Notes under the pieces: model-generated
Told to the model about the DNA's origin: nothing
Database searches by the model: none
The model's input: only the letters and a program-made list of their open reading frames with translations
Source: Pyxicephalus adspersus
Lineage: Eukaryota > Chordata > Amphibia > Anura > Pyxicephalidae
DNA: 64,000 nucleotides
Assembly: GCF_032062135.1 (NCBI RefSeq)
Contig: NC_092860.1
Location: forward strand, 1,783,100-1,847,099
Direction of reading: 5' to 3'
Made by a program: the position numbers and the translations under genes
In this document: positions 9,536 to 63,946 of the stretch, piece by piece
Layout: the number at the start of each line of letters is the position of its first letter
Position numbering within the stretch: position 1 is the stretch's first letter

Positions 9536-9905
9536 TACGTTATTGGTTTATATAGCTCTGACATATACCGCAGCAATGTACAAAGAACATAGAGCTGATC
9601 CTATCATCTCTGTACAGAGGACCTGACACTCTAATGTACCCCACAGTCGCACACCATTATACATTTATATAGCTCTGACATATACCGCAGTGCTGTACAG
9701 AGATCACTGAGCCAGTCCCATCAGTCTCTGTACAGAGGAGCTGACACTCTAATGTCCCCCCACAGTCACAGCTGTACAGAGATCACTGAGCCAGTCCCAT
9801 CAGTCTCTGTACAGAGGAGCTGACACTCTAATGTCCCCCCACAGTCACATACTATTAATATACATTTATATAGCTCTGACATATACCGCCGTGCTGTACA
9901 GAGAA
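9536..9905 (-). repeat. Family B SINE/L2-tail repeats, three adjacent copies
   Basis: TATAGCTCTGACATATACCG, CAGTGCTGTACAGAGA and CAGTCTCTGTACAGAGGAGC occur three times (about 9536-9655, 9656-9770 and 9771-9905). The tail resembles the L2 type (GCTGTACAG), but the body differs. Confidence 0.8.
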
Positions 9906-11008
9906 CACTGAGCCATGGATATAATATAAAGTATGGTAGAACATTCTGTATCTTGCAATTCACAGCCATTGGGGAGAAGTGATGTTACTTTGCCCTTTGT
10001 TTTCCATGGTGCTGCAGTATAACACGTCTGCTCTTGCAGTGTTTGTTTTGTAAAATGTGGCAACACGCAGCATACCCGGGGCCACATTTCATAATTCGTC
10101 TCCTTCTCAACAACATACAATGAGGGTGTTCCTCCTTTAGGTGCTCCGGCTGTTGCTGGAGCGCCGCCTGTAAGCGGACACAACTATCACTCCCTATGGT
10201 GGGAGTATCGCTGACACCTCCACAGACCTCCAGTTGTTTCCTTACTTTCTGTATGGATCGGCACGATTTACCTCCAACATACCCCAATGTCATTTGCCGT
10301 AACATTTTCTAAGACGGGAGGAGGCTGGGGGTTTGTGGGCCTTTAGGTTCATTCTCTCTACACCCCCCCTCCACGCCCAGTGTCCCCTAAGCTGTTTCCC
10401 CCCTCGGTTTCCGGGAATGCTGGCGCTGGTAGTGGTGCGTGTTGTATTTCAGCTCGGAATGTTTGCATTGTGTCACACAAAGCTCAATACCTCCAAACAG
10501 ATTGAGCTTTGTACGCCCGAAGGGTTCAGCAACGTGACAGCACTGGAAATATGAGTTTGTTTCTAGGGAACCGAGCAGCCTTGCTGAATGGTAGCCCCGG
10601 TATTACTTTTATTATTATTAAACAGGATTTATATTTCTTTGTATATTCCCCACAACTGCTTCTTGTAAACCCCACATTTGTCATCTTTACAAATCTTCCC
10701 CATGAGCTCCTACAACACCAGCAATAAAGAAATGTTGGGTTTGTGTTTTATTTCCTTGAATGTATTTCATTCTGTGATCAGTGAGAAAATACAGGAAGTC
10801 AGCTGTTTGCAGAGAAATCTCTTCCTTCTGGGTCAGAGATTTAACCCTGATATGTAACCCCATCATAAACATTTGTGCTGCGGTTATAATTCAGTGAAAT
10901 TCAGGAAACCTTTTGTGTGCGTGCAGTGGGCAGACATCTGTTTGCTTGAAATTTTCTCCTGGGCTGTGGAAACCTCAAAAATTATATATTTTTTTCTGCT
11001 GCTGATCT

Positions 11009-11030
11009 CCCCCCCCCCCCCCCCCCCCCC
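11009..11030. repeat. C homopolymer (22)
   Basis: Uninterrupted run in FOXK2 intron 1. A shorter G run lies at 12436-12451. Lengths may be assembly-sensitive. Confidence 0.9.
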
Positions 11031-11644
11031 ATGCCTTGTTTTGCAGCCATCTTGGTAGAAGCAGAGCTTTGTTTTATCATGTTGGAGCTGCCCACTTAAT
11101 GACTGGCGGGAGAAATATTCAAGAAGCAGCAGGAATGATTCACAAAGACTCACAATGAATGAATGAAGCCGATGCGTGCAGCACAGATTCCTTTCCAGCA
11201 TGCAGCACGGCAGTGACGTCACCGCATAGATTACACATTGTAAGCAATAGGAAGACAGATATGAGGAAAATCAATCCAATCAGGGCATTCCTAATCAATA
11301 TATTGATCACTTGTGCTGGTTCTTTATTTCGTCATTCAGCACGGAGTATTCCCACCAGCCAAAAAGATTGTTTTCTGTATTACATGAACGCAACACTGCC
11401 AGCAGTTTTTAGGAAATGCTCCTGACTGGTTTGATCTATTAATGCATGGCGGTAATCCAATACGTGACTAATATCAGGAAGACATTGATCATTTACTGGC
11501 ATTCATTGGCCAATGTATACCTGGCATTGCTAATTCTAGCAATCGGTCGTAGTGCCTCCCTCCTGTTTTTGCGTCAGGGTCTCTGCAATTTTAAACCTCT
11601 TCTTTACCCATTTAGGACAAAGCAAAGAGTTTGCAATAAACCCC

Positions 11645-11785
11645 ATTATTATTAATAAACACGATTTATTTAGCGTCAACATATTACGCAGCGCTGTGCA
11701 ATAAATAGGGGTTGCAAATGACAAACAGATACAGGCAGTGACACAGAAGTAGACCCTGTTCCGAAGAGCTTACAATCTAGGAGGT
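11645..11785 (-). repeat. L2-type 3' tail
   Basis: GCGTCAACATATTACGCAGC, GGTTGCAAATGACAAAC and GAGCTTACAATCTAGGAGG. Confidence 0.8.
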
Positions 11786-11994
11786 GGGGGAAGTAGCACA
11801 CAAAAGGAGGGTCCCAGCCATTGATATTCCTTTTCTCCATTAAGTTGACAAGAATTTCCTGTACTTCGGGAGCAGCATATGACTATTTCTCTAAGACTCA
11901 CAGACCTTACATTTGTTTGCTTTTCCCTTTGGGTTATTTTGAACAATCCAAAAACATACTGATTACAGCATTTACATTGTGTAGCTACATTGTG

Positions 11995-12070
11995 GACATT
12001 AGATTGCAAGCTCCTGTGGTGCCCATGGTTACAATATTCATTCTCTGAAGTGTTTATAAATAAAGGTTCC
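11995..12070 (+). repeat. Degenerate L2-type tail
   Basis: GGACATTAGATTGCAAGCTC followed by a TATAAATAAAGG-type end. Confidence 0.45.
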
Positions 12071-12500
12071 TAATAATTGTTCTTTAGTACTTTTTATAGG
12101 TGTCTTGCTGTATTTTTGGTCCGGCTGTCTCAGCAGTATGGCCGTAGGCTGCGAGGGGTGAATGTCCAATAAACAAAGCTGTATTGAATGAACAATGTCA
12201 GAGCCTCTCTTGTTCAGCAGTTTCCTCAGACTGGTCATTTACATAACCCAGCTTGAGAATTTGTCACTTTGCCTTTGCTGACAAAAGGCTAGTTCAGAGG
12301 TTCCTTGCAGACCGGAGTGAATGTGCCCGGCTGGGTAAGCAAAGTCGGATCATCTACAAGGCGGCTTAGGACCATAGGGCCCAGGAGATGTCAAGGACGC
12401 CCAGATATCAATATTACTGAACCAGAGCCAATGATGGGGGGGGGGGGGGGGAAAGATGTCAACCTGCCAATGTCTGTCCCTTCTGCAACATTTTCCTATC

Positions 12501-12812
12501 TTAATAATATTACACAATATTTATATAGTGCCGACATTTTATGCAGCGCTGTACAAAGTCTATAGTCATGTGACTAACTGTCCCTCAAAGGGGCTCACAA
12601 TCTAATGTCCCTACCATAGTCATATGTCATTAATACAGTCCAAGGTCAATTTTTGGGGGGAAGCCAATTAACCTAACTGTATGTTTATAGAATGTGGGAG
12701 GAAACCCACACAAACTTGGGGACAACTTGCAAACTCCATGCAGATATTGTCCTGGCTGAGTTTCGAACCTGGGGCTGCAAAGGCCAAAGTGTTAACCTCT
12801 AAGCCAAAGGAC
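12501..12812 (-). repeat. V-SINE
   Basis: Reverse copy. The tail with GCAGCGCTGTACAAAG comes first on the + strand, then GTGGGAGGAAACCCACACAA, AACTCCATGCAGATA and GTTTCGAACCTGGG. The tRNA-like head is decayed. Confidence 0.8.
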
Positions 12813-12901
12813 TCTTGATTCCAAGGCCCCATTTCCCCTGTTTTGTCATAATTCATTCCTATATGTAAAGGGTGAGATGTCTGTGGTATTGGGACATAGG
12901 T

Positions 12902-13008
12902 CCTCCTCCTTGGTCATTGTATGTATCTGTCTGATATTTACAGCCCCTATTTATTTTACAGCGCTGCGTAATATGTTGGCGCTATATAAATACTGTTAAA
13001 TAATAATA
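12902..13008 (+). repeat. L2-type 3' tail
   Basis: TTTACAGCGCTGCGTAATAT, GTTGGCGCTATATAAATACT and a TTAAATAATAA end. Confidence 0.75.
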
Positions 13009-13024
13009 CTTGCATTAGAGAGGG

Positions 13025-13296
13025 CAGTGTTTCTCAAAACTTTACCATGAGGGAACCCTTGAAATAACTTTCAGGTCTTCAGGGCCCGCCTTCTATAATT
13101 ACTATGTCCACAGTTCAAAGTACATTAGTGTGGTGATCAGTAGGAAGAATGCCTCAGACATTGCTGGTCAATTTGAAGAATGTCACGCTTACAGATAAAC
13201 TAATTATTGGGGCTCTTACTCTCTCTGACTTGAGAGGCACAAACTGCTCATTGGTCCAGGAACCCCTAGCGCCCTCTGGAGGAACCCTGGTTGAGA
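13025..13296. mobile_element. hAT-like MITE, longer relative of 4876-5067
   Basis: Starts CAGTGTTTCTCAAAACTTT and shares GGAACCCTTGAAATAACTTT and the TCCACAG segment with the other copy. The right end GGAACCCTGGTTGAGA lacks the last bases of the terminus. Confidence 0.7.
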
Positions 13297-13463
13297 TGGA
13301 GGCTGATATCCAGGACTAAAGCTAAATCCAAGCAGCTTTCCCAAAGTGATTACTGGCCCAAAACTTGCATAAAGCTTGATGAAGAATGACAATTTCTAGA
13401 TGTGGCTTCTCACGGAGGTCGATTCTCTATAATCTATGTCCTGCATCTATTCGGTGTACAATC

Positions 13464-13552
13464 CAGAAGTTTTTTTTTTTTCAGCCGGTTGGAAAGGTTA
13501 CTGAAAAGTGCCGGAATGATGTATCCAGCTAAAAGGGGCGGAAAGAACACTG
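13464..13552 (+). mobile_element. CAGTGTTC MITE copy 4 (internally deleted)
   Basis: Retains GGTTACTGAAAAGTGCCGG and the GAACACTG end; the central part is missing. Confidence 0.7.
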
Positions 13553-14619
13553 CTATTGCTCATGAACCCGATCTCTGCTGCTTTCCTCAGTGACCCGGCT
13601 CTTTCTGCTGCCTTTTAACACCTTTTTTTTCCCACTTCCCCTCCGCCTTGTGTGATGGTTGCCCTATTTACGGAGCTCTAATTAAATCTTCCTTGACCCA
13701 ATTTGTTGCATTAATAGAAAGCAACTTTGCAACCAGAATGGAAGCAGAACAAGTCCCAGCGGAGAGTGGAGGTGGCCCCGTGTCATGTGAAAAGAACAGG
13801 GCCACACATGGAGATGGCCTCGGGCTGCAGATATCCGGCTATTCTGGTCCTGCAATGTCCGGGGCCACATCTGTCTGATAGCCAGCCGTACGTCGGTCTG
13901 ATGTGCATCCTTAGGTGATCCCTACTTGTATGAGATAATGTAGCCTCTGCCGCATGGAATAACAATATTACAATCCACCGAGGTTAGCGGTCATGTAAAT
14001 GCATGAGATTGCTGGCTGCTTGTATTTCTAATGATTGGAGAACTCCAAAGTGAATCCAGATTATAATTTATTGCTGGGGCTGCAATACTCCTGCTGCAGT
14101 AAATGGATGAAAGGAGAAGTAAATCTGGGAGACTTGTAGGCCTGCGAGAAAGCTGGACTTTCAGCTTTACATTACAGCTTCTTCCATCTGTCCACATTGT
14201 AACCTATTCCTTCTCTACATCTTCCAACAGTTTGTAGCGTGAGGACACCCTGACACTTGTAGTCCCCCCAGGAACTTTTAGCATGAGTGTCGCTATTAAA
14301 GGGGAGTCTGTTCGCAGCCTTCCTTGTTCCCGTTGCCCAGCAAGGCCGCTTCATCCTGAACAATGCCGGCCCAGCAGATATTGGCTCCTTTTTTCTGTTG
14401 TGGGAGCTGGAAGACGTTTTCTGGGAGAGTAGAGTCACTATAGCAACAGCCGTGCTCGCTCATAGACTCGTGGAAACGGCTTGATAAAGATTCCATTTTC
14501 TCCGGGGTTCTTTCTGTAGCCTGGGAGATGGCTGTTTCATGTACAGCACCGGCATGATGCAGAGTTTATAAAAGTGGCGGCGCAGCGGCCATTTTGTATG
14601 AACAGATACCAGTATTCAA

Positions 14620-14753
14620 CCCTGAAATTTTTTTAAGGTTGGTGGCAGCCTCTGTATTGTGACCCAACTTTTCAGTAACTACCCAAAAAGCCGGGTGAAT
14701 ACTGTAAAGTGCCGGATGGTGCGCCCAGCTTAAAGGGACTGGGGAGATCACTG
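14620..14753 (+). mobile_element. CAGTGTTC MITE copy 5
   Basis: Starts CAGTATTCAACCC and ends GAGATCACTG, with CAACTTTTCAGTAAC inside. No flanking duplication was recognised. Confidence 0.75.
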
Positions 14754-15424
14754 GGAGACCCTCAAGTCACATGGCAACAAGTCATTTGACCGGCACCTTG
14801 TGACATCACTGGGGTATAAGAACGTTATATGTAAAATTCAAGTTTTCCTGCAGCATTTAGATGCCCCATTGTGCAGGTTGGGTGTCATGCAGGAAGCCCA
14901 GGCAGTTCCTGCATTGCATTATGGGTCCAGGTATTATAGAAAGGAGCCGGTTTATAATCCGTTATTACGCTACCGATCCCCTTTAAGCAAAGTTCGTGTT
15001 TTCATATGGTGCCTTCCTGCTGTTTGTTGATTTTCAGTGCTCCGAATCCGTTCCAGAATCTCCTCCCCATGTGCTACAGTGCCAGCACTTCTCCGGACCC
15101 TGGCAATGTCCCTTCCTCTCCTGTTTCCATTTGGCCGTTTACACGCTGGGTTTCCAGGAATCATACAAAGTCTTTTCTGCAGGAGTGTGCGGCCTTATAA
15201 AATTACAACCAAAAAAAGAATCTGCCAAGTCCTATGTGCAGCATGACAACAGACCGGGGCAGAAATCTGTGATTACCAGCAAATTTTAGGAATCACTCCA
15301 ACCACAGCAATTATAAACTCTTAATTTGAGTTATTGTAGGTGGGGTTATAGTGAGTTTGGCGTCTTTGTGCATTTCTTTTACAATATTGTGCAGAAATGT
15401 TTTCATTGTCCAATCTTGGTGTAT

Positions 15425-15537
15425 TGTGAATCCCTGTATTGTGACCCAACTGTTCAGTAATCGCCCAAAAACAGCCGAGTGGTTACTGAAAAGTTCCAGG
15501 TGGTGCACCCATCTAAAAGGTACCGAGGAGAATACTG
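15425..15537 (+). mobile_element. CAGTGTTC MITE copy 6 (left-truncated)
   Basis: Has CCTGTATTGTGACCCAACTG, the GTGGTTACTGAAAAG arm and the GAATACTG end. Confidence 0.7.
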
Positions 15538-15802
15538 ATTTTGTCCTCTCTCCTGTTCACTTTCCAAGGGCCCAAGTCATGTGACTGCAAGTTCTGTTCA
15601 TCAGCTGTGCTTTGAGTAAATATCTTCCTGAATCCATGTACTGAATATCGTTGAAGTGTTCAGCATCCGATACGTTCACTTTTCTGTTTTTGTTATAGAG
15701 CAGCAGCCTGCAAGGTCCTCCCAATGTACAAAACGTCTGTCACAGTGCCCTCTAATGGCAGGGCTCATATTTTACAGTGACAGGTCAACCCAACTGTGTT
15801 AA

Positions 15803-16235
15803 GCTACGTACACACTTCCAATAATTATCGTTGGTAAACGAACGACGAACGATCCTGCACGATATCGGCGAACGATCGTATAGCACCGATCCTGTACATG
15901 CAGATAACGACACGATCGTTCGCAGATATTGTACACACAATAGATGCGATCGTTTGAACGATACAGGAAGTGACGTGCACCACAGGAAGTGAACGAACGT
16001 TCGTTCATCACGCATGCTCAGACCATGGACGATCAATGAACGACCGTACACACGATAGATGGTAAACGATCGTCGTCCAATCCGATCCGCCGGTCCGGTC
16101 GTTCATTTCCAGCGACTATTCTCGTTCGTCGGCGTCGTTGGTTACTTTTTTTACGAACGATTTTTGACCAATCGATCGTTCGTCGTTCGTTCGTCGTTCA
16201 TTTCCAACGATAAAAATTGGAAGTGTGTACGCAGC
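15803..16235. mobile_element. GAACGA-rich MITE with TTAA-type target site
   Basis: Ends are GCTACGTACACACTTCCAAT and, inverted on the right, ATTGGAAGTGTGTACGCAGC. Flanks are TTAA (15799-15802) and TTTA (16236-16239). The interior is dominated by GAACGA/TCGTTC motifs in both orientations. No coding capacity. Confidence 0.8.
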
Positions 16236-16332
16236 TTTATTGTAAATTAGGGAAGCATTGGGCTCGTTAAAATCAAGTGACAAATGTCCAATACATTTTC
16301 CTTCAACTGTACTATTCTAAGGATGTACAAGA

Positions 16333-16441
16333 ACCCCCACCTCCTAGATTTTAATCTCTGTATCTGTCTGTCATTTTCAACCCCTATTTAATGTACAGCG
16401 CTGCATAATATGTTGGTGCTATATAAATCCTGTTTAATAAT
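16333..16441 (+). repeat. L2-type 3' tail
   Basis: CCTCCTAGATTTTAATCTC, CTGTCTGTCATTTTCAACCC and ATGTTGGTGCTATATAAATC. Confidence 0.8.
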
Positions 16442-17652
16442 ATCTGGAGCAGAAGTGGTGGCATTACCCTTAGCACATGCTATCATAGAATCAGTGTCAC
16501 CTTTATAGGAAGGGCAGTGAAAAGCTAAATATATTTTACAGGTTACAGCCTAAACCAATTGCCCCAACCCTTTTATCAGTCCTTCTTGCTGGACAGATGG
16601 CTCTGCATTGTACTGAAGTGGGCACCTTGAGGGAATCATTCCCTGGTATTAACCCCATAATTACCACAATTCCTTTGAAAGGGAATTGCATTGGTGGCTA
16701 TTTTGATTTGTCCATGAAAGTTTCTGATTACTAGAAGATCTTTTAATATCTTATTCATTGCATTGCATTCTCTCTATCTAAACCCCGATCTGCAGCAAGG
16801 CGCTGAGTGTAGGCGAGGGATCTTGTTGCATCGACGGTGACCACATGGAGTATTTACACGATTTGTTTTTGTAAACATGAAGATGTTTAGAGAGCCGGCA
16901 TTTCACATGGAGATCAAATAGACCTCGTAGAAGAACTGTGTGAATGTTATCGGTGCTGTAGACATTCACTCCTGACTTGAGGACTGCGGTCTCTGAATGA
17001 GTTCTTCTGTGGGACAGGTACACTTTATTAAAAAACTGCAGGGGGACCCCACCAGGGGCTGCAAAGTAAATCTGTAGAGTGCTTATTTCTCCATTGTTCA
17101 GTGAAGTTCACAAATGTCAGGATTTGTCTGCAGATGTATGCAGGGTTTGAGCTCGTTTTGCACACTTGGCCCGGCTTTCCCTTGCAGATGTGAGCAGTTA
17201 ATGTCCATCCAGGGACCAGTCAGTGGCCGGGCATTTTTTAGGCCTTACATACTGTACTCCTGGCTAGAGGACCCGGCTCTTTGTGGGGATTTTTTCCACC
17301 CCTTTTCTCCTTCTTTTGTTGCCTTCCCCCTCCTCAAAGCTGAACACAAGGGGGGCGCATGAGGAATGCAAGAAATCGCAAGGCGCCTGGTTACTACAGT
17401 AACCCATTGCCCGCAGTCTGCAGTGCTGACCAGAGCCGCCTTCCCAGCCCCCTGTGTTGTTCCCTTTTTTTGGGTGAATTCCTTCGTCCATTCATTCAAC
17501 TTTCATAGAACTCCGAAACCACTCAAAGATCCCCCAAAGCTTTCACACAGACTGTTCCTGTCCGAAAGGCGGGATGAATATTGATGTGTTCTGCTCTCAG
17601 GGTTTATCAATTTAACTTTTATATTTTATCCAGCCAGAGCCAACGATCCAGT

Positions 17653-18220
17653 NNNNNNNNNNNNNNNNNNNNNNNNNNNNNNNNNNNNNNNNNNNNNNNN
17701 NNNNNNNNNNNNNNNNNNNNNNNNNNNNNNNNNNNNNNNNNNNNNNNNNNNNNNNNNNNNNNNNNNNNNNNNNNNNNNNNNNNNNNNNNNNNNNNNNNNN
17801 NNNNNNNNNNNNNNNNNNNNNNNNNNNNNNNNNNNNNNNNNNNNNNNNNNNNNNNNNNNNNNNNNNNNNNNNNNNNNNNNNNNNNNNNNNNNNNNNNNNN
17901 NNNNNNNNNNNNNNNNNNNNNNNNNNNNNNNNNNNNNNNNNNNNNNNNNNNNNNNNNNNNNNNNNNNNNNNNNNNNNNNNNNNNNNNNNNNNNNNNNNNN
18001 NNNNNNNNNNNNNNNNNNNNNNNNNNNNNNNNNNNNNNNNNNNNNNNNNNNNNNNNNNNNNNNNNNNNNNNNNNNNNNNNNNNNNNNNNNNNNNNNNNNN
18101 NNNNNNNNNNNNNNNNNNNNNNNNNNNNNNNNNNNNNNNNNNNNNNNNNNNNNNNNNNNNNNNNNNNNNNNNNNNNNNNNNNNNNNNNNNNNNNNNNNNN
18201 NNNNNNNNNNNNNNNNNNNN
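17653..18220. other. Assembly gap (568 N)
   Basis: Run of N. The right edge is a family B repeat, so the gap probably fell in repeats. Confidence 1.
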
Positions 18221-18300
18221 AGCTCTGACATATACCATAGTGCTGTACAGAGAACACTGAGCTGGTCCCATCAGTCTCTGTACAGAGGAGCTGACACTCC
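18221..18300 (-). repeat. Family B repeat at the gap edge
   Basis: AGCTCTGACATATACCATAG and CAGTCTCTGTACAGAGGAGC; its start lies in the N gap. Confidence 0.8.
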
Positions 18301-18769
18301 TTTTATTACACATTTCTGTGCCCCCCTTGCTTTCGGGGTTAGAATAACATTGCAGTCTTTCCAAGGTCTGTGTTTCTGTCCCCTCCACTCATGTCATAGA
18401 TAACAGATGTCTGTTCGTCACCCCAGCCTTGAATGTCCTTCATATAAACTGCAATGTTCTGTGTAAAATTCTGCTGCAGAGCTCATTAAAAAAAAACAAA
18501 CAAAAAACATAATTTCTGTGTTAGATGGAATAGAGCCACGGAATCGATGAACCTTAAAATAGTTTGCTGTGTGATTGATTTCCTGCCCACCAATTATGAC
18601 CCATTGGGGTATAATTTCTCCACTCATGTTTTCTTGGGTGGCTACAATGCCTTGTGGGGTCCCCATTGTAGCCACCCTTGTGTGACTTGAGATGAGAGGC
18701 CGGCAGAAGCGCTGTGTGGGTTGGATGTACACACATGGTGGTAACTGCGTCCGCTACAATGGGGATCTA

Positions 18770-18927
18770 CTGTGTTGAACCCAGATTTTTTCTTTAGCTG
18801 GTTGGGATAAAAAAAAACTGTAGGCGGGTGGCAGCCTCGGTATTGTGTCCCAACCCAAAAACAGTTGTGTGGTTACTGAAAAGTGCCGGGTGGTGCGCCC
18901 AGCTTAAAGGGGCCAGGGAGAGCAATG
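18770..18927 (+). mobile_element. CAGTGTTC MITE copy 7
   Basis: Starts CTGTGTTGAACCC and contains GGCGGGTGGCAGCCTC and GGTTACTGAAAAGTGCCGGG, ending GAGCAATG. Confidence 0.7.
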
Positions 18928-19295
18928 CACTACAACTTTACAAGCCTGCTCGGTAAATGTAGATTGGTAATGGCTGCAATGGTCAGATCCTCACACATAA
19001 CTGTGCTGTATAGAGTAAAGGTATGGCAGTAGCAGGTGAGCATGTACAGTATATTATGTCAGACTGCAAGTGATCATGAGATAAGTCATCCCACCAGCAG
19101 GGGCGCACCTGAAGCAAGCATGAATGTAACCGTGCAGCAAATCGTGCTGCAATCCCGAACACATGAGCTGCTTCCAATTCAATAAATTACAAAATTGGAG
19201 GATCAGAGCACCAAGCTGCATGTTGCAGGTCGGCAATGGCAGTTCATCTCTCAGTGACATGTCCACTTCAAATGCATTGAATCTATGAAAGTATA

Positions 19296-25760: not shown

Positions 25761-37113
<11,353 letters not shown>

Positions 37114-56601: not shown

Positions 56602-56683
56602 ACCAGCCACTAACAGTCTTTTCTGTTCCCTGGAAGCCCAATTGATTTCTAGTGTATCGACTTAACCACTCGGCCAAAACTAC
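56602..56683 (-). pseudogene. tRNA-Ser(AGA)-like pseudogene
   Basis: The - strand begins GTAGTTTTGGCCGAGTGGTT and continues with an anticodon arm CACTAGAAATCAATTGGG, matching tRNA-Ser(AGA) through the variable arm. The T arm and the 3' acceptor strand do not match (no GGTTCGAATCC), so it is a decayed or 3'-truncated copy. Confidence 0.6.
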
Positions 56684-56790: not shown

Positions 56791-56872
56791 CCAGACGCTT
56801 TCCGATCGCAGATGGCGTTGGATTTAGGCTCCAGTATCTCCGGAGGCGTGGGTTTAAATCCCACCGCTGCCA
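56791..56872 (+). pseudogene. tRNA-Leu(UAG)-like pseudogene
   Basis: The 3' two-thirds, GGATTTAGGCTCCAG (anticodon UAG), GGAGGCGTGGG and TTTAAATCCCACCGCTGCCA, match tRNA-Leu closely over an 82-nt length. The 5' acceptor strand (CCAGACG) no longer pairs with CGCTGCC, and the B box has TTTAAATCC in place of TTCGAATCC. It is probably inactive. Confidence 0.65.
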
Positions 56873-57289: not shown

Positions 57290-57345
57290 GGCAAGAGCAC
57301 AGTGATTTGAACCTGCGTGGGATAACCCCAATGGGTTTCTAGTCA
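57290..57345 (-). pseudogene. tRNA-Ser 3' fragment at the edge of the PCED1-like locus
   Basis: On the - strand, GACTAGAAACCCATTGGGG, then CCCACGCAGGTTCAAATC, match the anticodon, variable and T arms of tRNA-Ser(AGA). The 5' part is replaced by left-arm repeat sequence (GGGCAGTGTGCAGGCGGCAG), so the locus appears to have joined or inserted here. Confidence 0.55.
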
Positions 57346-57717
57346 ATTGAGTCTGCCGCCTGCACACTGCCCAGTACCCATCTCATCCAGACTAGACTCA
57401 AGCTCAACAGGTTCTTCTTTCCCCGCTGATTCCGCCAAACCCAATGCCTTTCTTGTAGTTTCGCTACATAGTAGGTAGGGACAGATCTCGTTCATCCAGT
57501 CATGTCTCCAATAGCTACAGCTTCGACACTGTCCATTTAGGTGATGGCCTCGACCTCTAATGCTATCTTTGCTCCGTCTTAGGGCCCACCGTCTCCTCCT
57601 CATGCTGTTACTGCTGCCGCCTACCCAGTACCCAGCTCTAGATGCCAGTTACCAATTCTGTCTACGCTGCATCTCAGAGCCCACCGCCTCCTCTTCCTGC
57701 TATTTCTGCTGCACGCC
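57346..57717 (-). repeat. Left inverted arm of the PCED1-like locus
   Basis: Read on the - strand, this contains one or two units of the same roughly 100-bp minisatellite that fills 58840-62340, in opposite orientation. It also contains a module with GGACAGTGT, GAAGCTGT and GGAGACATGA, and another with GGAATCAGCGGGGAAAGAAG. Both modules recur on the + strand at 62360-62512, and the second also at 58760-58830. The arm ends against a tRNA-Ser-like sequence. Confidence 0.7.
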
Positions 57718-58457
57718 CCCGGCTTGATCAGTATGAGCCATCATGATGCAGGTATACTTCAGATCAGCCAGCTGATTCGAGTGGGTTGCATCTTTAACCC
57801 AGGAGCACAGCTTAAAGCGAAAGTGGAAGTGCATGTCAATCACATTCAATCGGTGCAAATCTGCCAGTGTGGCGCTGTAGAAATCCCCTTTTATGATGTC
57901 CCAACGCACATTTGGAATTGTGTATTCTAGCACTTCATCAGCTTTGAATCCAACAGACATGGACATGTTGCATATCACCAGACACTTGGGGCTCAGCACC
58001 TTGGTGAGCCAAATAAACAGGTTGTCCCGGGTTGTTTTGTACATTTGCATTGATTGCTCATGATACCTGATAACATTCTATATACACGAGTTAAAGACTA
58101 CATCGGGCTGAGGTCCATGTTCGAAGACAGCCAGCACGCTCTCTATGTACTCCGAAGAGACACGGGTCAGTAAATAGAACCGTACAAGGTGGTGGTCAGT
58201 TCTGTAATGATGCACTTGGCAGTAAATTTTGCCATTGTGCATTTCACCAAGAGATCCCCTAAAGTGTCGTTTGCATATGACATCTCACCCTTCCCTTTCA
58301 GCTGCTTCTCAGTCAGAAACTCATCATTCTGCAGTATTTTCACAAGATCCTTGTTGATGGATCTTTGAATGGAGTCTCCCAGGTCGGCCACATACTTATG
58401 GAGAAGATACTTTTTATGGCGAAGTCTTTGGACATCTGCTGAGCTCAATAACTTCAT
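57718..58457 (-). pseudogene. PCED1-like (PC-esterase/FAM113) intronless copy, broken
   Basis: PCED1A/B are GDSL/SGNH-type PC-esterase domain proteins of uncertain substrate. An ATG at 58457 opens a frame with LGDSIQR (the GDS nucleophile block), INKDLV and LTEKQLKGKGEMSY. The frame then shifts by one base near 58255-58268, after which GEMHNG, HHLVRFYLLTR and SSEYIESVL continue the family match. A TAG at 58080-58078 sits where the family has Trp after NSC. Beyond it come CLVICNMSM, GDFYSATLADLHRLNVIDMH, FHFR and DATH, close to the family's catalytic end. The whole domain is contiguous without introns, unlike the mammalian genes, so a retrocopy is likely. The usual proline-rich tail is absent: the frame runs into minisatellite DNA. 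With only two lesions, an assembly error or a recent origin cannot be excluded. Confidence 0.8.
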
Positions 58458-58706
58458 GGCTCAATGTGGTCATCCAGGACCTCTGGGTTCCCGTTAAACA
58501 TTCCGGTGTCTCCTATCTCATCACCCTGACATATACAGAGGGACTGCTGTCAAACTTTCCAGTTCCGGGGTAACATACACAGAAATTCAGTCCCATAAAG
58601 CGTGGTACCGATCGATGAAGCAGAAGACTTGGCTTTCTACATTCAATCACAAATTTCAGATTACACACTTGCGTTACACACTTCGGGGTGTCATTAAAGA
58701 TGCACT
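58458..58706 (-). other. Unassigned sequence upstream of the PCED1-like copy
   Basis: About 250 bp between the PCED1-like ATG and the first right-arm module. No repeat unit and no known domain was recognised. It could be 5' UTR carried along with the retrocopy, which is inference. Confidence 0.35.
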
Positions 58707-58860
58707 ACACCCAGCTCTAGATGCCAGTTACTAGTGCCTTCCACACTCCGTCTCAGGGCCTTCTATCGAGTGAAAGCACATGAAAGGGAACGGGCTTGGC
58801 AGAATCAGCGGGGAAAGAAAACCCTGTTAAGCTTGAGTCTAGTCTGGCATCTAGAGCTGG
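58707..58860 (+). repeat. Inner junction module of the right arm
   Basis: 58707-58758 is a minisatellite piece in left-arm orientation (AGCTCTAGATGCCAGTTACT). 58760-58860 then switches orientation with AATCAGCGGGGAAAGAAAAC, GAGTCTAGTCTGG and the start of the + strand array. So one orientation switch lies inside this short stretch. Confidence 0.65.
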
Positions 58861-61800
58861 GTACTGGGTAGTGGGCAGGCAGCAGTAATAGCAGGAAGTT
58901 TGGTACTGGGTACTAGAGTTTGGTACAGGGAAGGTGGCAGCATCATTTACAGCAGAAGGAGTAGGAGGCGGTGGGCTCTGAGACGGAGTGGATACGGCAT
59001 TAGTATCTGGCATCTAGAGTTTGGCACTGGGCAGGCGGCAGCATCATTTACAGCAGGAGGAGGAGGAGGCGGTGGGCTCTGACGCGGAGTGTGAACGGCA
59101 TTAGTATCTGGCATCTACAGTCGGGCAATGGGCAGGCGGCAGCATCAGTTACAGCAGGAGGAGGAGGAGGCGGTGGGCTCTGAGACAGAGTGTGGACAGC
59201 ATTAGTATCTGGCATCTACAGTCAGGTACTGGGAAGGTGGCAGCATCATTTACAGCAGGAGGAGGAGGCGGTGGGCTTTGAGACGGAGCATGGACGGCAT
59301 TAGTATCTTGCATCTACAGTCGGGTACTGGGCAGAGGGCAGCATCATTTACAGCAGGAGGAGGAGGCAGTGGGCTCTGAGACGAAGCGTGGACGGCATTA
59401 GTACCTGGCATCTACAGTCGGGCAATGGGCAGGCGGCATCATTTACAACAGGAGGAGGAGGCGTTGGGCTCTGTGACGGAGCATGGACGGCATTCGTATC
59501 TGGCATCTAGAGTTTGGGACTGGGCAGACGGCAGCATCATTTACCACAGGTGGAGGAGGCGATGGGCTCTGAGACGAAATGTGTATGGCATTAGTATCTG
59601 GCATCTAGAGTTTGCTACTTGGCAGGCGGCAGCATCAGGTACAGCAGGAGGAGGAGGAGGTGGTGAGCTCTGAGACAGAGTGTGGATGGCATTAGTATCT
59701 GGCATCTACAGTCGGGTACTGGGCAGGCGGCAGCATCATTTACAGCAGGAGGAGGAGGAGGCGGTGGGCTCTGAGACGGAGCATGAACGGCATTAGTATC
59801 TGGCATCTAGAGTTTGGGACTGGGCAAGCGGCAGCATCAGTTACAGCAGGAGGAGGCGGAGGGCTCTGAGACAGAGTGTGGATGGCATTAGTATCTGGCA
59901 TCTACAGTCGGGTACTGGGCAGGCAGCAGCATCATTTACAGCAGGAGGAGCAGGAGGCGGTGGGCTCTGAGACGGAGTGTGAGCGGCATTAGTATCTGGC
60001 ATCTACAGTCGGGTACTGGGCAGGCGGCAGCATAAGTTACAGCAGGAGAAGGAGGAGGTGGTGGGCCCTGAGATGGAGTGTGGACAGAATTAGTATCTGG
60101 CATCTACAGTCAGGTACTGGCCAGGCAGCAGCATCATTTACAGCAGGAGGAGGAGGAGGCGGTGGGCTCTGAGACGGAGCATGGACGGCATTAGTATCTG
60201 GCATCTAGAGTTTGGTACTGGGCAGACGGCAGCATCAGTTACAGCAGGAGGAGAGAGAGGCGGTGGGCTCTGAGACAGAGTGTGGACGGCATTAGTATCT
60301 GGCATCTACAGTCGGGTACTGGGCAGGCGGCAGCATCATTTACAGCAGGAGGAGGCGGTGGGCTCTGAGACGGCGTGTGAACAGTATTAGTATCTGGCAT
60401 CTACAGTCGGGTACTGGGCAGGCGGCAGCATCATTTACAGCAGGAGGAGGAGGAGGCGGTGGGCTCTGAGACGGCGTGTGAACGGTATTAGTATCTGGTA
60501 TCTACAGTTGGGTACTGGGCAGACGGCAGCATCAGTTACAGCAGGAGAAGGTGGTGAGCTCTGAGACGGAGTGTGGATGGCATTAGTATCTGGCATCTAG
60601 AGTTTGCTACTTGGCAGGCGGCAGCATCAGGTACAGCAGGAGGAGGAGGAGGTGGTGAGCTCTGAGACAAAGTGTGGACGGCATTAGTATCTGGCATCTA
60701 CAGTGGGGTACTGGGCAGGCGGCAGCATCATTTACAGCAGGAGGAGGAGGAGGCGGTGGGCTCTGAGATGGAGCATGAACGGCATTAGTATCTGGCATCT
60801 ACAGTGGGGTACTGGGCAGGCGGCAGCATCAGTTACAGCAGGAGGAGGAGGAGGCGGTGGGCTCTGAGACAGAGTGTGGATGGCATTAGTATCTGGCATC
60901 TAGAGTCGGGTACTGGGCAGGCAGCAGCATCATTTACAGCAGGAGGAGGAGGAGGCGGTGGGCTCTGAGACGGAGTGTGAACGGCATTAGTATCTGGCAT
61001 CTACAGTTGGGTACTGGGCAGGCGGCAGCATCAGTTACAGCAGGAGAAGGAGGAGGTGGTGGGCTCTGAGATGGAGTGTGGACAGATTTAGTATCTGGCA
61101 TCTAAAGTCAGGTACTGGCCAGGCAGCAGAATCATTTACAGCAGGAGGAGGAGGAGGCGGTGGGCTCTGAGATGGAGCATGGACGGCATTATTATCTGGC
61201 ATCTAGAGTTTGGTATTGGGCAGGCAGCATCATTTACAGCAGGAGGAAGAGGCGGTGGGCCCTGAGACAGAGTATGGACGGCATTTGTATCTGGCATCTA
61301 GAGTTTGGTACTGGGAAGGTGGCAGCATCATTTACAGCAGGAGGAGGTGGTGGGCTCTGTGACGCAGTCTGGACGGCATTAGTATCTGGCATCTACAGTT
61401 GGGTACTGGGCAGGTAGCAGCATCAGTTACAGCAGGAGAAGGAGGAGGTGGTGGGCTGTGAGACGGAGTGACGACAGAACTAGTATCTGGCATCTACAGT
61501 CAGGTACTGGGCAGGAAGCAAGATAATTTACAGCAGGAGGAGGAGGAGGCGGTGGGCTCTGAGACAGAGTGTGGCCGGCATTAGTATCTGGCATCTACAG
61601 TTGGGTACTGGGCAGGCAGCAGCATAACTTACAGCAGGAGGAGGATGAGGCAGTGGGTTCTGAGACGGAGTGTGGATGGCATTAGTATCTGGCATCTACA
61701 GTCGGGTACTGGGCAGGCTGCAGCATCATTTACAGCAGGAGGAGGTGGTGGGCTCTGTGACGGAGTGTGGACGGCATTAGTATCTGGCATCTATAGTCGG

Positions 61801-62345
61801 GTACTGGGCGGGCGGCAGCATCAGTAACAGCAGGAGGAGGCGGTGGGCTCTGAGACGTAGTGTAGACGGCATTAGTATCTGACATCTACAGTCAGGTACT
61901 GGGCAGGCGGCAGCATCAGTTACAGCAGAAGGAGGAGGAGGTGGTGGGCTCTGAGAAGGAGTGTGGACGGCATTAGTATCTGGCATCTACAGTCGGGTAC
62001 TGGGAAGGTGGCAGCATCATTTACAGCAGAAGGAGGAGGAGGTGGGCACTGGGACGGAGTGTGGACGGCATTAGTATCTGGCATCTACAGTCGGGTACTG
62101 GGCAGGCGGCAACATCATTTACAGCAGGAGGAGGAGGAGGAGGTGGTGGCTCTGAGACGGAGCTTGGACGGCATTAGTATCTGGCATCTAGAGTTGGGTA
62201 CTGGGCAGGCAGCAGTAACAGCAGGAGTAGGAGGCGGTGGGCTCTGAGACATAGTGTGGACGGCATTGGTATCTTGCATCTAGAGTCAGGCACTGGGAAG
62301 GCGGCAGCAGTAACAGCAGGATTAGGAGGCGGTGGGCCCTGTGAC
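58840..62345 (+). repeat. Minisatellite, period about 98-104 bp, about 35 units
   Basis: Unit landmarks are GGCATTAGTATCTGGCATCT, GGGTACTGGGCAGGCGGCAG, CATCATTTACAGCAGGAGG and GGCGGTGGGCTCTGAGAC. Starts of the GGCATTAG landmark at 59098, 59198, 59296 and 59394 give the period. The number of GGA triplets varies from unit to unit, so frames shift. ORFs across it (Pro-rich on -, Gly-rich on +) are products of the repetition rather than genes. Confidence 0.95.
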
Positions 62346-62515
62346 GGAGCGTGGACCGCATTGGAGGTTGAGGTCATCACCTCTATGGACAGTGTAGAAG
62401 CTGTTGCTAATTGAGACATGAATGGGTTAATGAAAATCACACTTTCCATACCTACTATCTAGTGAAACCACATAAAAGGGAACGGTCTTGGTGGAATCCG
62501 CAGGGAAATACATAC
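62346..62515 (+). repeat. Right terminal module of the PCED1-like locus
   Basis: Contains GGTTGAGGTCATCACCTCTA, TGGACAGTGTAGAAGCTGTT, GAGACATGA and AAAGGGAACGGTCTTGG then GGAATCCGCAGGGAAA. It is the inverted counterpart of 57370-57600, so the array and the pseudogene share one pair of ends. Confidence 0.65.
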
Positions 62516-62518
62516 ATT

Positions 62519-62989
62519 TTTTATCATTTGTGGATCTGTATTTGTTTCACATAAATATTTACATTTTTATAGGTTTTAGGATACATACCTAGTGCTATTA
62601 GAATAAAATATCTGTATTCTTTGGAAAAAAATATACAATTTTTTATGGCCTTTTGGATAGATATCAACCTACAAGTGCTATCAGAATTAAATATCTGTAT
62701 TGTTTGTAGAGAAATACATCATTTTTTTATGGCTTTAGGGAATCATAGCAAAGTGGGATCAGAACTAAAGATCTGTATTTTCTGTAGAGAAATATATAAT
62801 GTTTTATGGTCTTTTGGATCGATACAAAGTGCTATCAGAATTAAATATCTAGATTTTTGGGAGAGAAATATAGACATTTTTATGGCTTTGGAGATGTATA
62901 GCAAAGTGGGATCAGAATGAAATATCTGTTTTTTTTGGAGAGAAATACTGAAATTTTTATGGGTTTTAGGATGGATACCATGTGCCATC
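62519..62989 (+). repeat. Minisatellite, period about 77-83 bp, about 6 units
   Basis: Repeated landmarks are TTTTTATGG, GTGCTATCAGAATTAAATAT and GTAGAGAAATA; unit starts are near 62638, 62721, 62799, 62876 and 62953. The array resumes at 63947 after an insertion and runs to the window end. Confidence 0.85.
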
Positions 62990-63946
62990 TTTAGAGATGA
63001 GCGAATTTCTCAAAAATTTGATTCGGCCGGTTTCCCGAATTTTCCTGAAAAGATTTGCTTTGATCTGAATTTATTTGTGGCGAATTGCGGTTAAAAACTG
63101 CTATTTCCGGTTATTTTGGCTATTTCGCAGTTGCCGTGCAGTACTTCTACTATGTATTCTTAGATAGAGTTTCTCTATCTAAGAATACAGGGCACTAAAG
63201 GGGATGAATAGGGACAAGTCCCCATTCATCATCTGTAGTGCTCTGTATTCTTAGATATTGAAACTCTATCTAAGAAATCATAGAACAGCACTGCAACAGC
63301 AATCGCCGTTGCCGTGCTGTGATTTTACTATGTATTCTTAGATGGATTTTCTCTAACTTCTCTAACTATCTAAGAGTACATTCCTGGACATTGTAGTGGA
63401 ACTGCAGAGGACTGCAGTTCAGTTTCCCACATGACGTCACAGTGGCAAAACTGAACTGCAGATGACCTCTGCAGTTCCACTGCAGTCCCCATTCATCACC
63501 TGTAGTGCCCTGTATTCTTAGATAGAGAAACTCTATCTAAGAATACATAGTAAAAGCACAGCACGGGTGTTGCAGTGCTGTTCTATGTATTCTTAGATAG
63601 AGTTTCACTATCTAACAATACACAGCACTACAGGGGATGAATGGGGACTTGTCCCCATTCATCCCCTTTAGTGCCCTGTATTCTTAGATAGAGCTGTGCT
63701 TTTACTATGTATTCTTAGAGTTTCTCGATCTAAGAATACAGGGCACTAGTCCCTATTCATCCCCTGTAGTGCCTAAAAATCGTAGTGGAATCTCTAAAGT
63801 CCTCACACGTCTAGCTGCCATTTCAGGAAAGAATGGCGATTCGTTACAACGAATCGCGGGGAAATTTGGATTCCGAGCGAAACAAATTTTTCATGAAATT
63901 CGGATTGAATTCCACTTCGTCAGCTTCAATTTACTCATAATTAGTT
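62990..63946. mobile_element. Hairpin-rich non-autonomous DNA element inserted in the 78-bp array
   Basis: Its ends are weak inverted repeats (AGATGAGCGAATT on the left; AATTTACTCATAA on the right). It splits one minisatellite unit between GTGCCATC and ATCATAAT, so ATC may be a 3-bp target duplication. Inside are at least six versions of a TGTATTCTTAGATAGAG palindrome. Two are perfect with 17-bp arms (63153-63189 and 63511-63547). A second perfect palindrome lies at 63632-63667. The superfamily was not determined. Confidence 0.65.

What the first reader, a model, noticed from the sequence alone, without database searches (positions are those of the whole stretch)
57346..62515. PCED1-like retrocopy held between inverted minisatellite arms
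Seen: an intronless PC-esterase (PCED1/FAM113) domain on the - strand, with one frameshift and one stop, sits between arms carrying the same roughly 100-bp unit and two shared end modules in opposite orientation. The left arm has one or two units and the right about 35. Known: mammalian PCED1 genes have introns. Inference: this may be a foldback-like composite element, or a duplicated locus, that captured a processed PCED1 transcript and whose arm then expanded. I know of no described element with this design.
Basis: partly seen in the sequence, partly recalled or inferred. Interest (0 to 1): 0.78.

Follow-up and report, generated by a model that had tools for sequence, protein, structure and literature searches.

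The report
Frog repeat carrying dead gene copies
A broken piece of a host enzyme gene, apparently copied from its messenger RNA, sits inside an inverted-repeat element and was multiplied together with that element's repeat unit into dozens of copies in an African bullfrog genome, a design known mainly from flies.

Summary
A broken PCED1A-like frame (- strand, about 57719-58457, with a 5' stretch to 58708) lies between inverted arms built of a ~100-bp unit and modules A, B, C. The left arm has about two units, the right about 35; the outer ~300 bp pair at 80% identity. It is not a lone oddity. Two capped protein searches list 29 further broken copies in Pyxicephalus adspersus. They form one clade with the window copy (100/99), beside that species' own PCED1A-like proteins. 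An otherwise invariant Trp is replaced in 25 of 29; 8 of 29 show the window's deletion frame; 7 of 29 run straight into the arm unit, against 0 of 128 proteins of other species. So a dead, apparently processed gene piece was joined once to the repeat and the composite was multiplied. Old-type units sit only at the arm edges; the 33 interior units of the long arm are of a derived type, so that arm probably grew later. Not shown: that other copies have inverted arms or common ends; no target-site duplication was found. The own-genome search did not complete. Best reading: a vertebrate element built like the gene-carrying Ssk-FB4 and the foldback Tetris of Drosophila.

The parts
57353..57386 (-). 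outer unit fragment of the left arm
   Evidence: pairs with 58854-58885; left limit uncertain by a few bases
57387..57417 (-). module A, left arm
   Evidence: pairs with 58817-58847
57418..57475 (-). module B, left arm
   Evidence: pairs with 58759-58816 and with 62451-62508
57476..57557 (-). module C, left arm
   Evidence: pairs with the C copy right of the array inside the 301-base arm pairing
57558..57718 (-). left-arm units, old type: one complete unit and the remainder of the unit interrupted by the gene piece
57719..58457 (-). broken PCED1A-like frame, residues 1 to about 247 of P0001; one frameshift, one stop; 3' limit is within short similarity to the unit
58458..58708 (-). stretch upstream of the ATG, partly shared with P0129 (58659-58483); possibly 5' UTR (not tested)
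58709..58760 (-). other part of the interrupted unit, in left-arm orientation; inner end of the left arm
   Evidence: 81% to 57630-57681
58759..58816 (+). module B, inner end of the right arm
58817..58847 (+). module A, right arm
58848..62362 (+). array of about 35 units; old-type units only at the inner edge (58862) and outer edge (62196, 62290), 33 derived units between
62363..62450 (+). module C, right arm
62451..62508 (+). module B, outer end of the right arm
57304..57347 (-). flank: tRNA-Ser(AGA)-like 3' part directly beside the left end
   Evidence: 37 of 44 bases to a recalled tRNA-Ser

Best explanation
A decayed copy of a non-autonomous, foldback-like composite element. Inverted arms (each first a few ~100-bp units plus modules C, B, A) took up a piece of spliced PCED1A mRNA sequence (an upstream stretch plus about 247 codons) inside the innermost unit of one arm, joined by short similarity and without poly(A) or target duplication, as expected of gap-filling or template-switching repair. 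The captured frame was broken before most of the spread, so its enzyme did not drive the spread. The composite was multiplied, probably by a transposase supplied from elsewhere acting on the arms. In this copy one arm then grew to about 35 units from a derived interior unit. Shown: the composite, a multi-copy family of single origin, shared damage, the distribution of unit types. Inferred: spliced-mRNA origin, order of the arm growth, inverted arms in other copies, transposase-driven spread.
For: 29 broken P. adspersus relatives (lower bound: two lists capped at 120) form one clade with the window copy, 100/99, sister to P0001 and P0006. 7 of 29 carry the arm unit after the PCED1 part, 0 of 128 other-species proteins and 0 of 2 gene-like P. 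adspersus ones do. Deletion frame LG[DEI] in 8 of 29 against 0 of 130; Trp of the HW.Q block replaced in 25 of 29 against 0 of 130. Foreign N-termini join PCED1 at about Q26 in 3 of 128 other-species models, an apparent exon joint that the window DNA crosses without an intron. Outer arms pair over 301 bases. Unit types.
Against: No target-site duplication at the ends tried. Arm order is not fully symmetrical (A outside B on the left, inside on the right). The two flanks are unrelated (tRNA part left, AT-rich array right). Taken alone, the left-arm unit is not closest to the outer right units (ranks 12 and 16 of 33). 22 of 29 relatives show no arm unit, most being models that stop or splice before it. 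No other copy was seen as DNA, so inverted arms elsewhere are unknown. A search with an array frame found no protein.
Confidence: 0.5

Rival explanations
1. Satellite-type or segmental amplification: a unit array into which a PCED1 piece fell was multiplied by unequal exchange, circles or duplication, and the inverted arms of this copy come from a local inversion.
For: Long array; modules recur as B-A-units-C-B on the right, like part of a higher-order repeat; no target-site duplication; three pairs of P. adspersus accessions lie within 5 numbers of each other, a weak hint of clustering.
Against: The window copy lies alone near a conserved gene; 25 accessions of element proteins are otherwise spread over some 9,600 to 19,200 accession numbers, depending on the letter order assumed, weak evidence of dispersal.
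Confidence: 0.25
2. A rolling-circle element of the Helentron type with internal tandem repeats carried the piece.
For: Non-autonomous Helentrons with satellite-like repeats are in print (PMC7492417 and PMC4067079, search listings only); absence of target-site duplication fits.
Against: Long inverted arms are not part of that design as I recall it; no end signature was recognised by eye, and ends are uncertain.
Confidence: 0.1
3. A composite retrotransposon (SVA-like: repeat units plus gene piece) spread by LINE machinery.
For: Gene piece without introns joined to a GC-rich repeat of variable number.
Against: No poly(A) and no target duplication seen at the piece or the element ends; inverted arms unexplained.
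Confidence: 0.1
4. Independent processed pseudogenes of PCED1A, the neighbouring repeats being coincidence.
For: Processed pseudogenes are common in vertebrates (general knowledge).
Against: One clade, shared damage and a shared junction with the arm unit.
Confidence: 0.02

Closest known systems
Ssk-FB4, a gene-carrying foldback of Drosophila melanogaster, and animal Pack-TIRs (PMC8277862; abstract, passages and the section on multicopy Pack-TIRs seen)
   Same: Inverted-repeat element with repetitive arms that holds a host gene and moved on as a chimera; microhomology at a breakpoint; no transposase of its own.
   Different: Ssk-FB4 took up a genomic gene, has 9-10 bp target-site duplications and few copies; here the piece looks spliced, the family has at least 30 members and no duplication was found. 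That survey reports four multicopy Pack-TIRs in its reference genomes, three of them in Xenopus tropicalis.
Tetris, foldback of Drosophila virilis (PMC4079207; abstract, passages and section 'Characterization of Tetris')
   Same: Arms of outer domain plus variable number of tandem units, variable middle part, units that expand into longer, more homogeneous arrays.
   Different: Middle part of Tetris has no protein-coding capacity; 8-10 bp target-site duplications are reported; unit about 220 bp, AT-rich, and unrelated species.
Galileo (passages in PMC4079207; search listing)
   Same: Long inverted repeats with internal tandem repeats.
   Different: P-superfamily transposase known for Galileo; none found here.
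Dada transposons of tRNA and snRNA genes (PMC3706591: passages and the tRNA-Leu section; PMC8869645: passages)
   Same: Element end directly beside a tRNA-Ser part, a tRNA-Leu part nearby; Dada-tL can be flanked by parts of different tRNA genes.
   Different: Dada-U6 and -U1 are said to lack terminal inverted repeats; the junction here is near tRNA-Ser position 27, not the reported Dada-tS target TGGCCG; no tRNA part was seen on the right.

Membership tests
Foldback element | Long inverted terminal repeats containing tandem units | tested here: met
   Outer 301 bases pair at 80%, units in both arms; not fully symmetrical
Foldback element | Target-site duplication of about 8-10 bp | tested here: not met
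   No shared word of 5 or more bases at the outermost ends; with other left limits one 6-base word (57465/62509), taken as chance
Foldback element | Several copies with the same arms and ends | not testable with these tools
   Other copies seen only as proteins; own-genome search unanswered in 11 of 11 tries
Pack-TIR | Host gene piece with a known parent inside the element | tested here: met
   PCED1A; sister to P. adspersus P0001 and P0006
Pack-TIR | Chimera multiplied with the same junction | tested here: met
   7 of 29 proteins show the 3' junction; 5' junction not seen in any
Pack-TIR | TIR element of a known superfamily with target duplication | tested here: not met
   No duplication; no Pfam transposase in the 4 arm frames tested
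LINE-made processed pseudogene | Introns absent | tested here: inconclusive
   Frame crosses apparent exon joints inferred from 3 gene models at about Q26 and 1 near residue 14-17; parent gene DNA not seen
LINE-made processed pseudogene | Poly(A) tail and target-site duplication | tested here: not met
   Piece ends in mid coding sequence against the unit
Dada | Insertion in a small-RNA gene with 6-7 bp duplication and gene parts on both sides | tested here: not met
   tRNA-Ser part on the left only; no duplication
Helentron | Characteristic end structures and insertion site | not tested
   Ends too uncertain

The most novel reading that the evidence does not exclude
A vertebrate foldback family that repaired a break in its own arm with sequence of a spliced host mRNA, spread the result to dozens of places, and whose arms seed new minisatellites by one-sided growth. 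A still bolder addition, a liking for tRNA genes as insertion sites, rests on one end of one copy (about 0.1).
Probability: 0.35. Interest if true: 0.7.

Novelty: new variant of a known kind. Interest (0 to 1): 0.5.

Why it matters
Multi-copy host-gene pieces in inverted-repeat elements are rare in animals in the one survey I saw (four multicopy Pack-TIRs in reference genomes plus the fly family Ssk-FB4; PMC8277862). A family of at least 30 members with one capture, a parent gene in the same species and a shared junction would let one test how such elements take up host sequence, from DNA or from spliced RNA, and how one arm turns into a minisatellite. It would also account for a set of short 'uncharacterized protein' models in the public P. 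adspersus proteome.

Tried and rejected
Pfam and NCBIfam on the two core frames gave only matches far below cut-off, and no PDB sequence matched at E up to 10; the core was identified through the large protein search. Rfam at gathering score and ARAGORN found nothing in the window; a permissive Rfam scan of 56.0-62.7 kb gave one hit at E 5, no tRNA; the tRNA parts showed only with recalled tRNA sequences. A protein search with an array frame scored nothing, so units away from PCED1 could not be shown. Pfam on four arm frames gave two matches below cut-off in one frame, none in the rest. In viral contigs 48 stretches matched a pattern and none encoded a relative. Rejected: independent pseudogenes (shared junction and damage); PCED1 proteins that contain the unit (P0001, P0006); selection for the enzyme (shared damage). 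The left-arm unit alone is not closest to the last two full right units (ranks 16 and 12 of 33); the edge argument rests on unit type. In one search two of the 33 derived rows (61273, 61368) were registered one motif off, and I read their units as derived; a third - strand row (57377) is a truncated fragment with low scores for both types and is not counted as a unit. Absence of the VEGG block in 29 of 29 models is weak, because many models splice past that place; the 8 of 29 with the deletion frame are the direct evidence.

Literature: no paper in the library holds 'PC-esterase domain', 'frog' and 'transposable element'; none holds 'Pyxicephalus adspersus' and 'PC-esterase'; none holds 4 of the 5 terms. 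Searches listed nothing on this element by title or abstract start. 'Not found in print' rests on these alone.
Full report
WHAT IS THERE. On the - strand a PCED1A-like frame runs from an ATG at 58457 to about 57719, with one frameshift near 58258 and one stop. It covers residues 1 to about 247 of the 432-residue P. adspersus protein P0001 and stops in mid coding sequence, where it meets the ~100-bp unit at a short stretch similar to both. Upstream of the ATG a further stretch reaches 58708. On that far side, 58709-58760 is a fragment of the unit in left-arm orientation (81% to 57630-57681). So the gene piece interrupts a unit, and the fold axis lies at 58759/58760.

ARMS. In + coordinates the left arm reads unit fragment, A, B, C, units, [gene piece], unit fragment, all in - orientation; the right arm reads B, A, unit fragment, about 35 units, C, B in + orientation. 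The outer 301 bases (units, C, B) pair with 60 mismatches and 5 gap columns; the B-A stretches pair with 22 mismatches in 133 aligned bases; neighbouring units of the array differ by about 11% on average. The arms are inverted but not fully symmetrical. With 200 two-base-block shuffles of the left arm the best minus-strand score was 31 bits against 255.

ARRAY HISTORY. I classed units by whether they read more like GCAGCAGTAACAGCAGG (called old) or GCAGCATCATTTACAGCAGG (called derived). Of 36 rows on the right arm 33 are derived; the 3 old ones lie at the inner edge (58862) and the outer edge (62196, 62290). The two left-arm units are old (caveats in Tried and rejected). Two P. adspersus proteins read through this part of the unit (P0059, P0085: GNWHLELGTG/GNWHPELGTG followed by QVAAVPA/QAASVTA), and their residues fit the old type, as in the left arm. 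So both arms probably began with few units and one arm was later filled by a derived unit. The order is inferred from unit types.

A FAMILY, NOT A SINGLE LOCUS. The frame, read through with X at the stop, found 268 proteins (E up to 0.001), 120 listed, 24 of them from P. adspersus. A profile of 20 of those found 187 (E up to 1e-10), 120 listed, 30 from P. adspersus. Together 159 proteins were seen, 31 from P. adspersus: two gene-like ones with the normal C-terminal part (P0001, P0006) and 29 short broken ones. Both lists are capped, so 29 is a lower bound. In a maximum-likelihood tree of 43 rows the window and the 29 form one clade (100/99; 100% of 200 bootstrap trees), sister to P0001 and P0006; the window pairs with P0091 (86/84). 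This suggests that the window is from Pyxicephalus or a near relative; no call names the source.

SHARED JUNCTION AND DAMAGE. Seven of 29 (P0005, P0011, P0027, P0059, P0068, P0085, P0124) run into the arm unit; 0 of 128 other-species proteins and 0 of the 2 gene-like ones do; P0129 shares the stretch upstream of the ATG. The remaining 22 are mostly models that stop or splice earlier and say little. The frame left by the window's deletion (LG[DEI]) shows in 8 of 29 against 0 of 130; the VEGG block is in 0 of 29 models against 93 of 130, though many of the 29 splice past it; the Trp of the HW.Q block, present in 130 of 130 others, is replaced in 25 of 29 (mostly by Ser), the other 4 lacking that part. 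The captured frame was thus broken before much of the spread, and its enzyme cannot be what drove it.

SPLICED ORIGIN. Among 128 other-species proteins three models carry unrelated N-termini that join PCED1 at Q26 or one residue before it: Acipenser P0098, Ranitomeya P0046 and Aquarana P0126 (sequences read by eye; the aligner starts them slightly earlier). One more, Pelobates P0035, joins near residues 14-17. These look like exon joints, and the window DNA is continuous across both. That favours a spliced source, but the parent gene's DNA was not seen. No poly(A) and no duplication flank the piece, so it is not an ordinary LINE-made pseudogene; repair of a break in the unit fits better, by inference.

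AGE. The window differs from the family majority at 28 of 177 residues; a neutral simulation gives about 7.5% base changes. Twice that is 0.15; the arms differ by 0.17-0.20. The arms were thus alike, perhaps not identical, when the copy arose. This does not separate the models.

ENDS AND SURROUNDINGS. Directly left of the element (57347-57304, -) is a tRNA-Ser(AGA)-like 3' part (37 of 44 bases); at 56683-56637 (-) a tRNA-Ser-like 5' part (41 of 47) and at 56814-56872 (+) a tRNA-Leu(TAG)-like 3' part (54 of 59) (recalled queries, recognised as tRNAs by ARAGORN). Right of it a 76-bp AT-rich array begins. No shared word of 5 or more bases joins the outermost ends; with other left limits one 6-base word appears. 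Exons of WDR45B/WIPI3 lie on the same strand, the nearest recognised by eye at about 49.8 kb, one confirmed by sequence at 46.1-46.5 kb.

WHAT IT WORKS LIKE, AND WHAT IT IS. It works most like Ssk-FB4 and Tetris: inverted arms with tandem units, a captured middle piece, no protein of its own, units that expand in place. Membership of the foldback group is not claimed, because a target-site duplication was sought and not found and common ends could not be tested. Dada was considered for the tRNA parts and set aside. Satellite-type spread with a local inversion is the main rival.

VERDICT. The new point is the family: one broken, apparently spliced PCED1A piece was joined once to a repeat and multiplied to at least 30 members in a frog. 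How it moved stays open until other copies can be read as DNA.

Noticed in passing
56637-56683 (-), 56814-56872 (+), 57304-57347 (-): Three broken tRNA-like stretches (Ser 5' part, Leu 3' part, Ser 3' part) within 0.7 kb, the last touching the element; each is cut at a different place.
   Followed up: partly
about 44.1-49.9 kb, - strand: Exons of a WDR45B (WIPI3) gene; one exon matches solved WIPI3 structures at E 1.5e-36, others recognised by eye.
   Followed up: partly
62534-62972: 76-bp AT-rich tandem array starting directly right of the element.
   Followed up: no
63173-63298 and 63568-63693: Inverted repeat of 126 bases at 94%, probably a separate small inverted-repeat element.
   Followed up: no
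35982-36325 and 28800-29041: 39-bp and 43-bp tandem arrays; the first is open in one frame with repeats like [13 protein letters not shown].
   Followed up: no
about 17.6-18.2 kb and 21.6-22.6 kb: Stretches that read N (as X in translations).
   Followed up: no
protein P0046 (Ranitomeya imitator), not in the window: A public gene model joins a Tc1-type transposase N-terminus to the PCED1 domain at the apparent exon joint; may be an annotation artefact.
   Followed up: no
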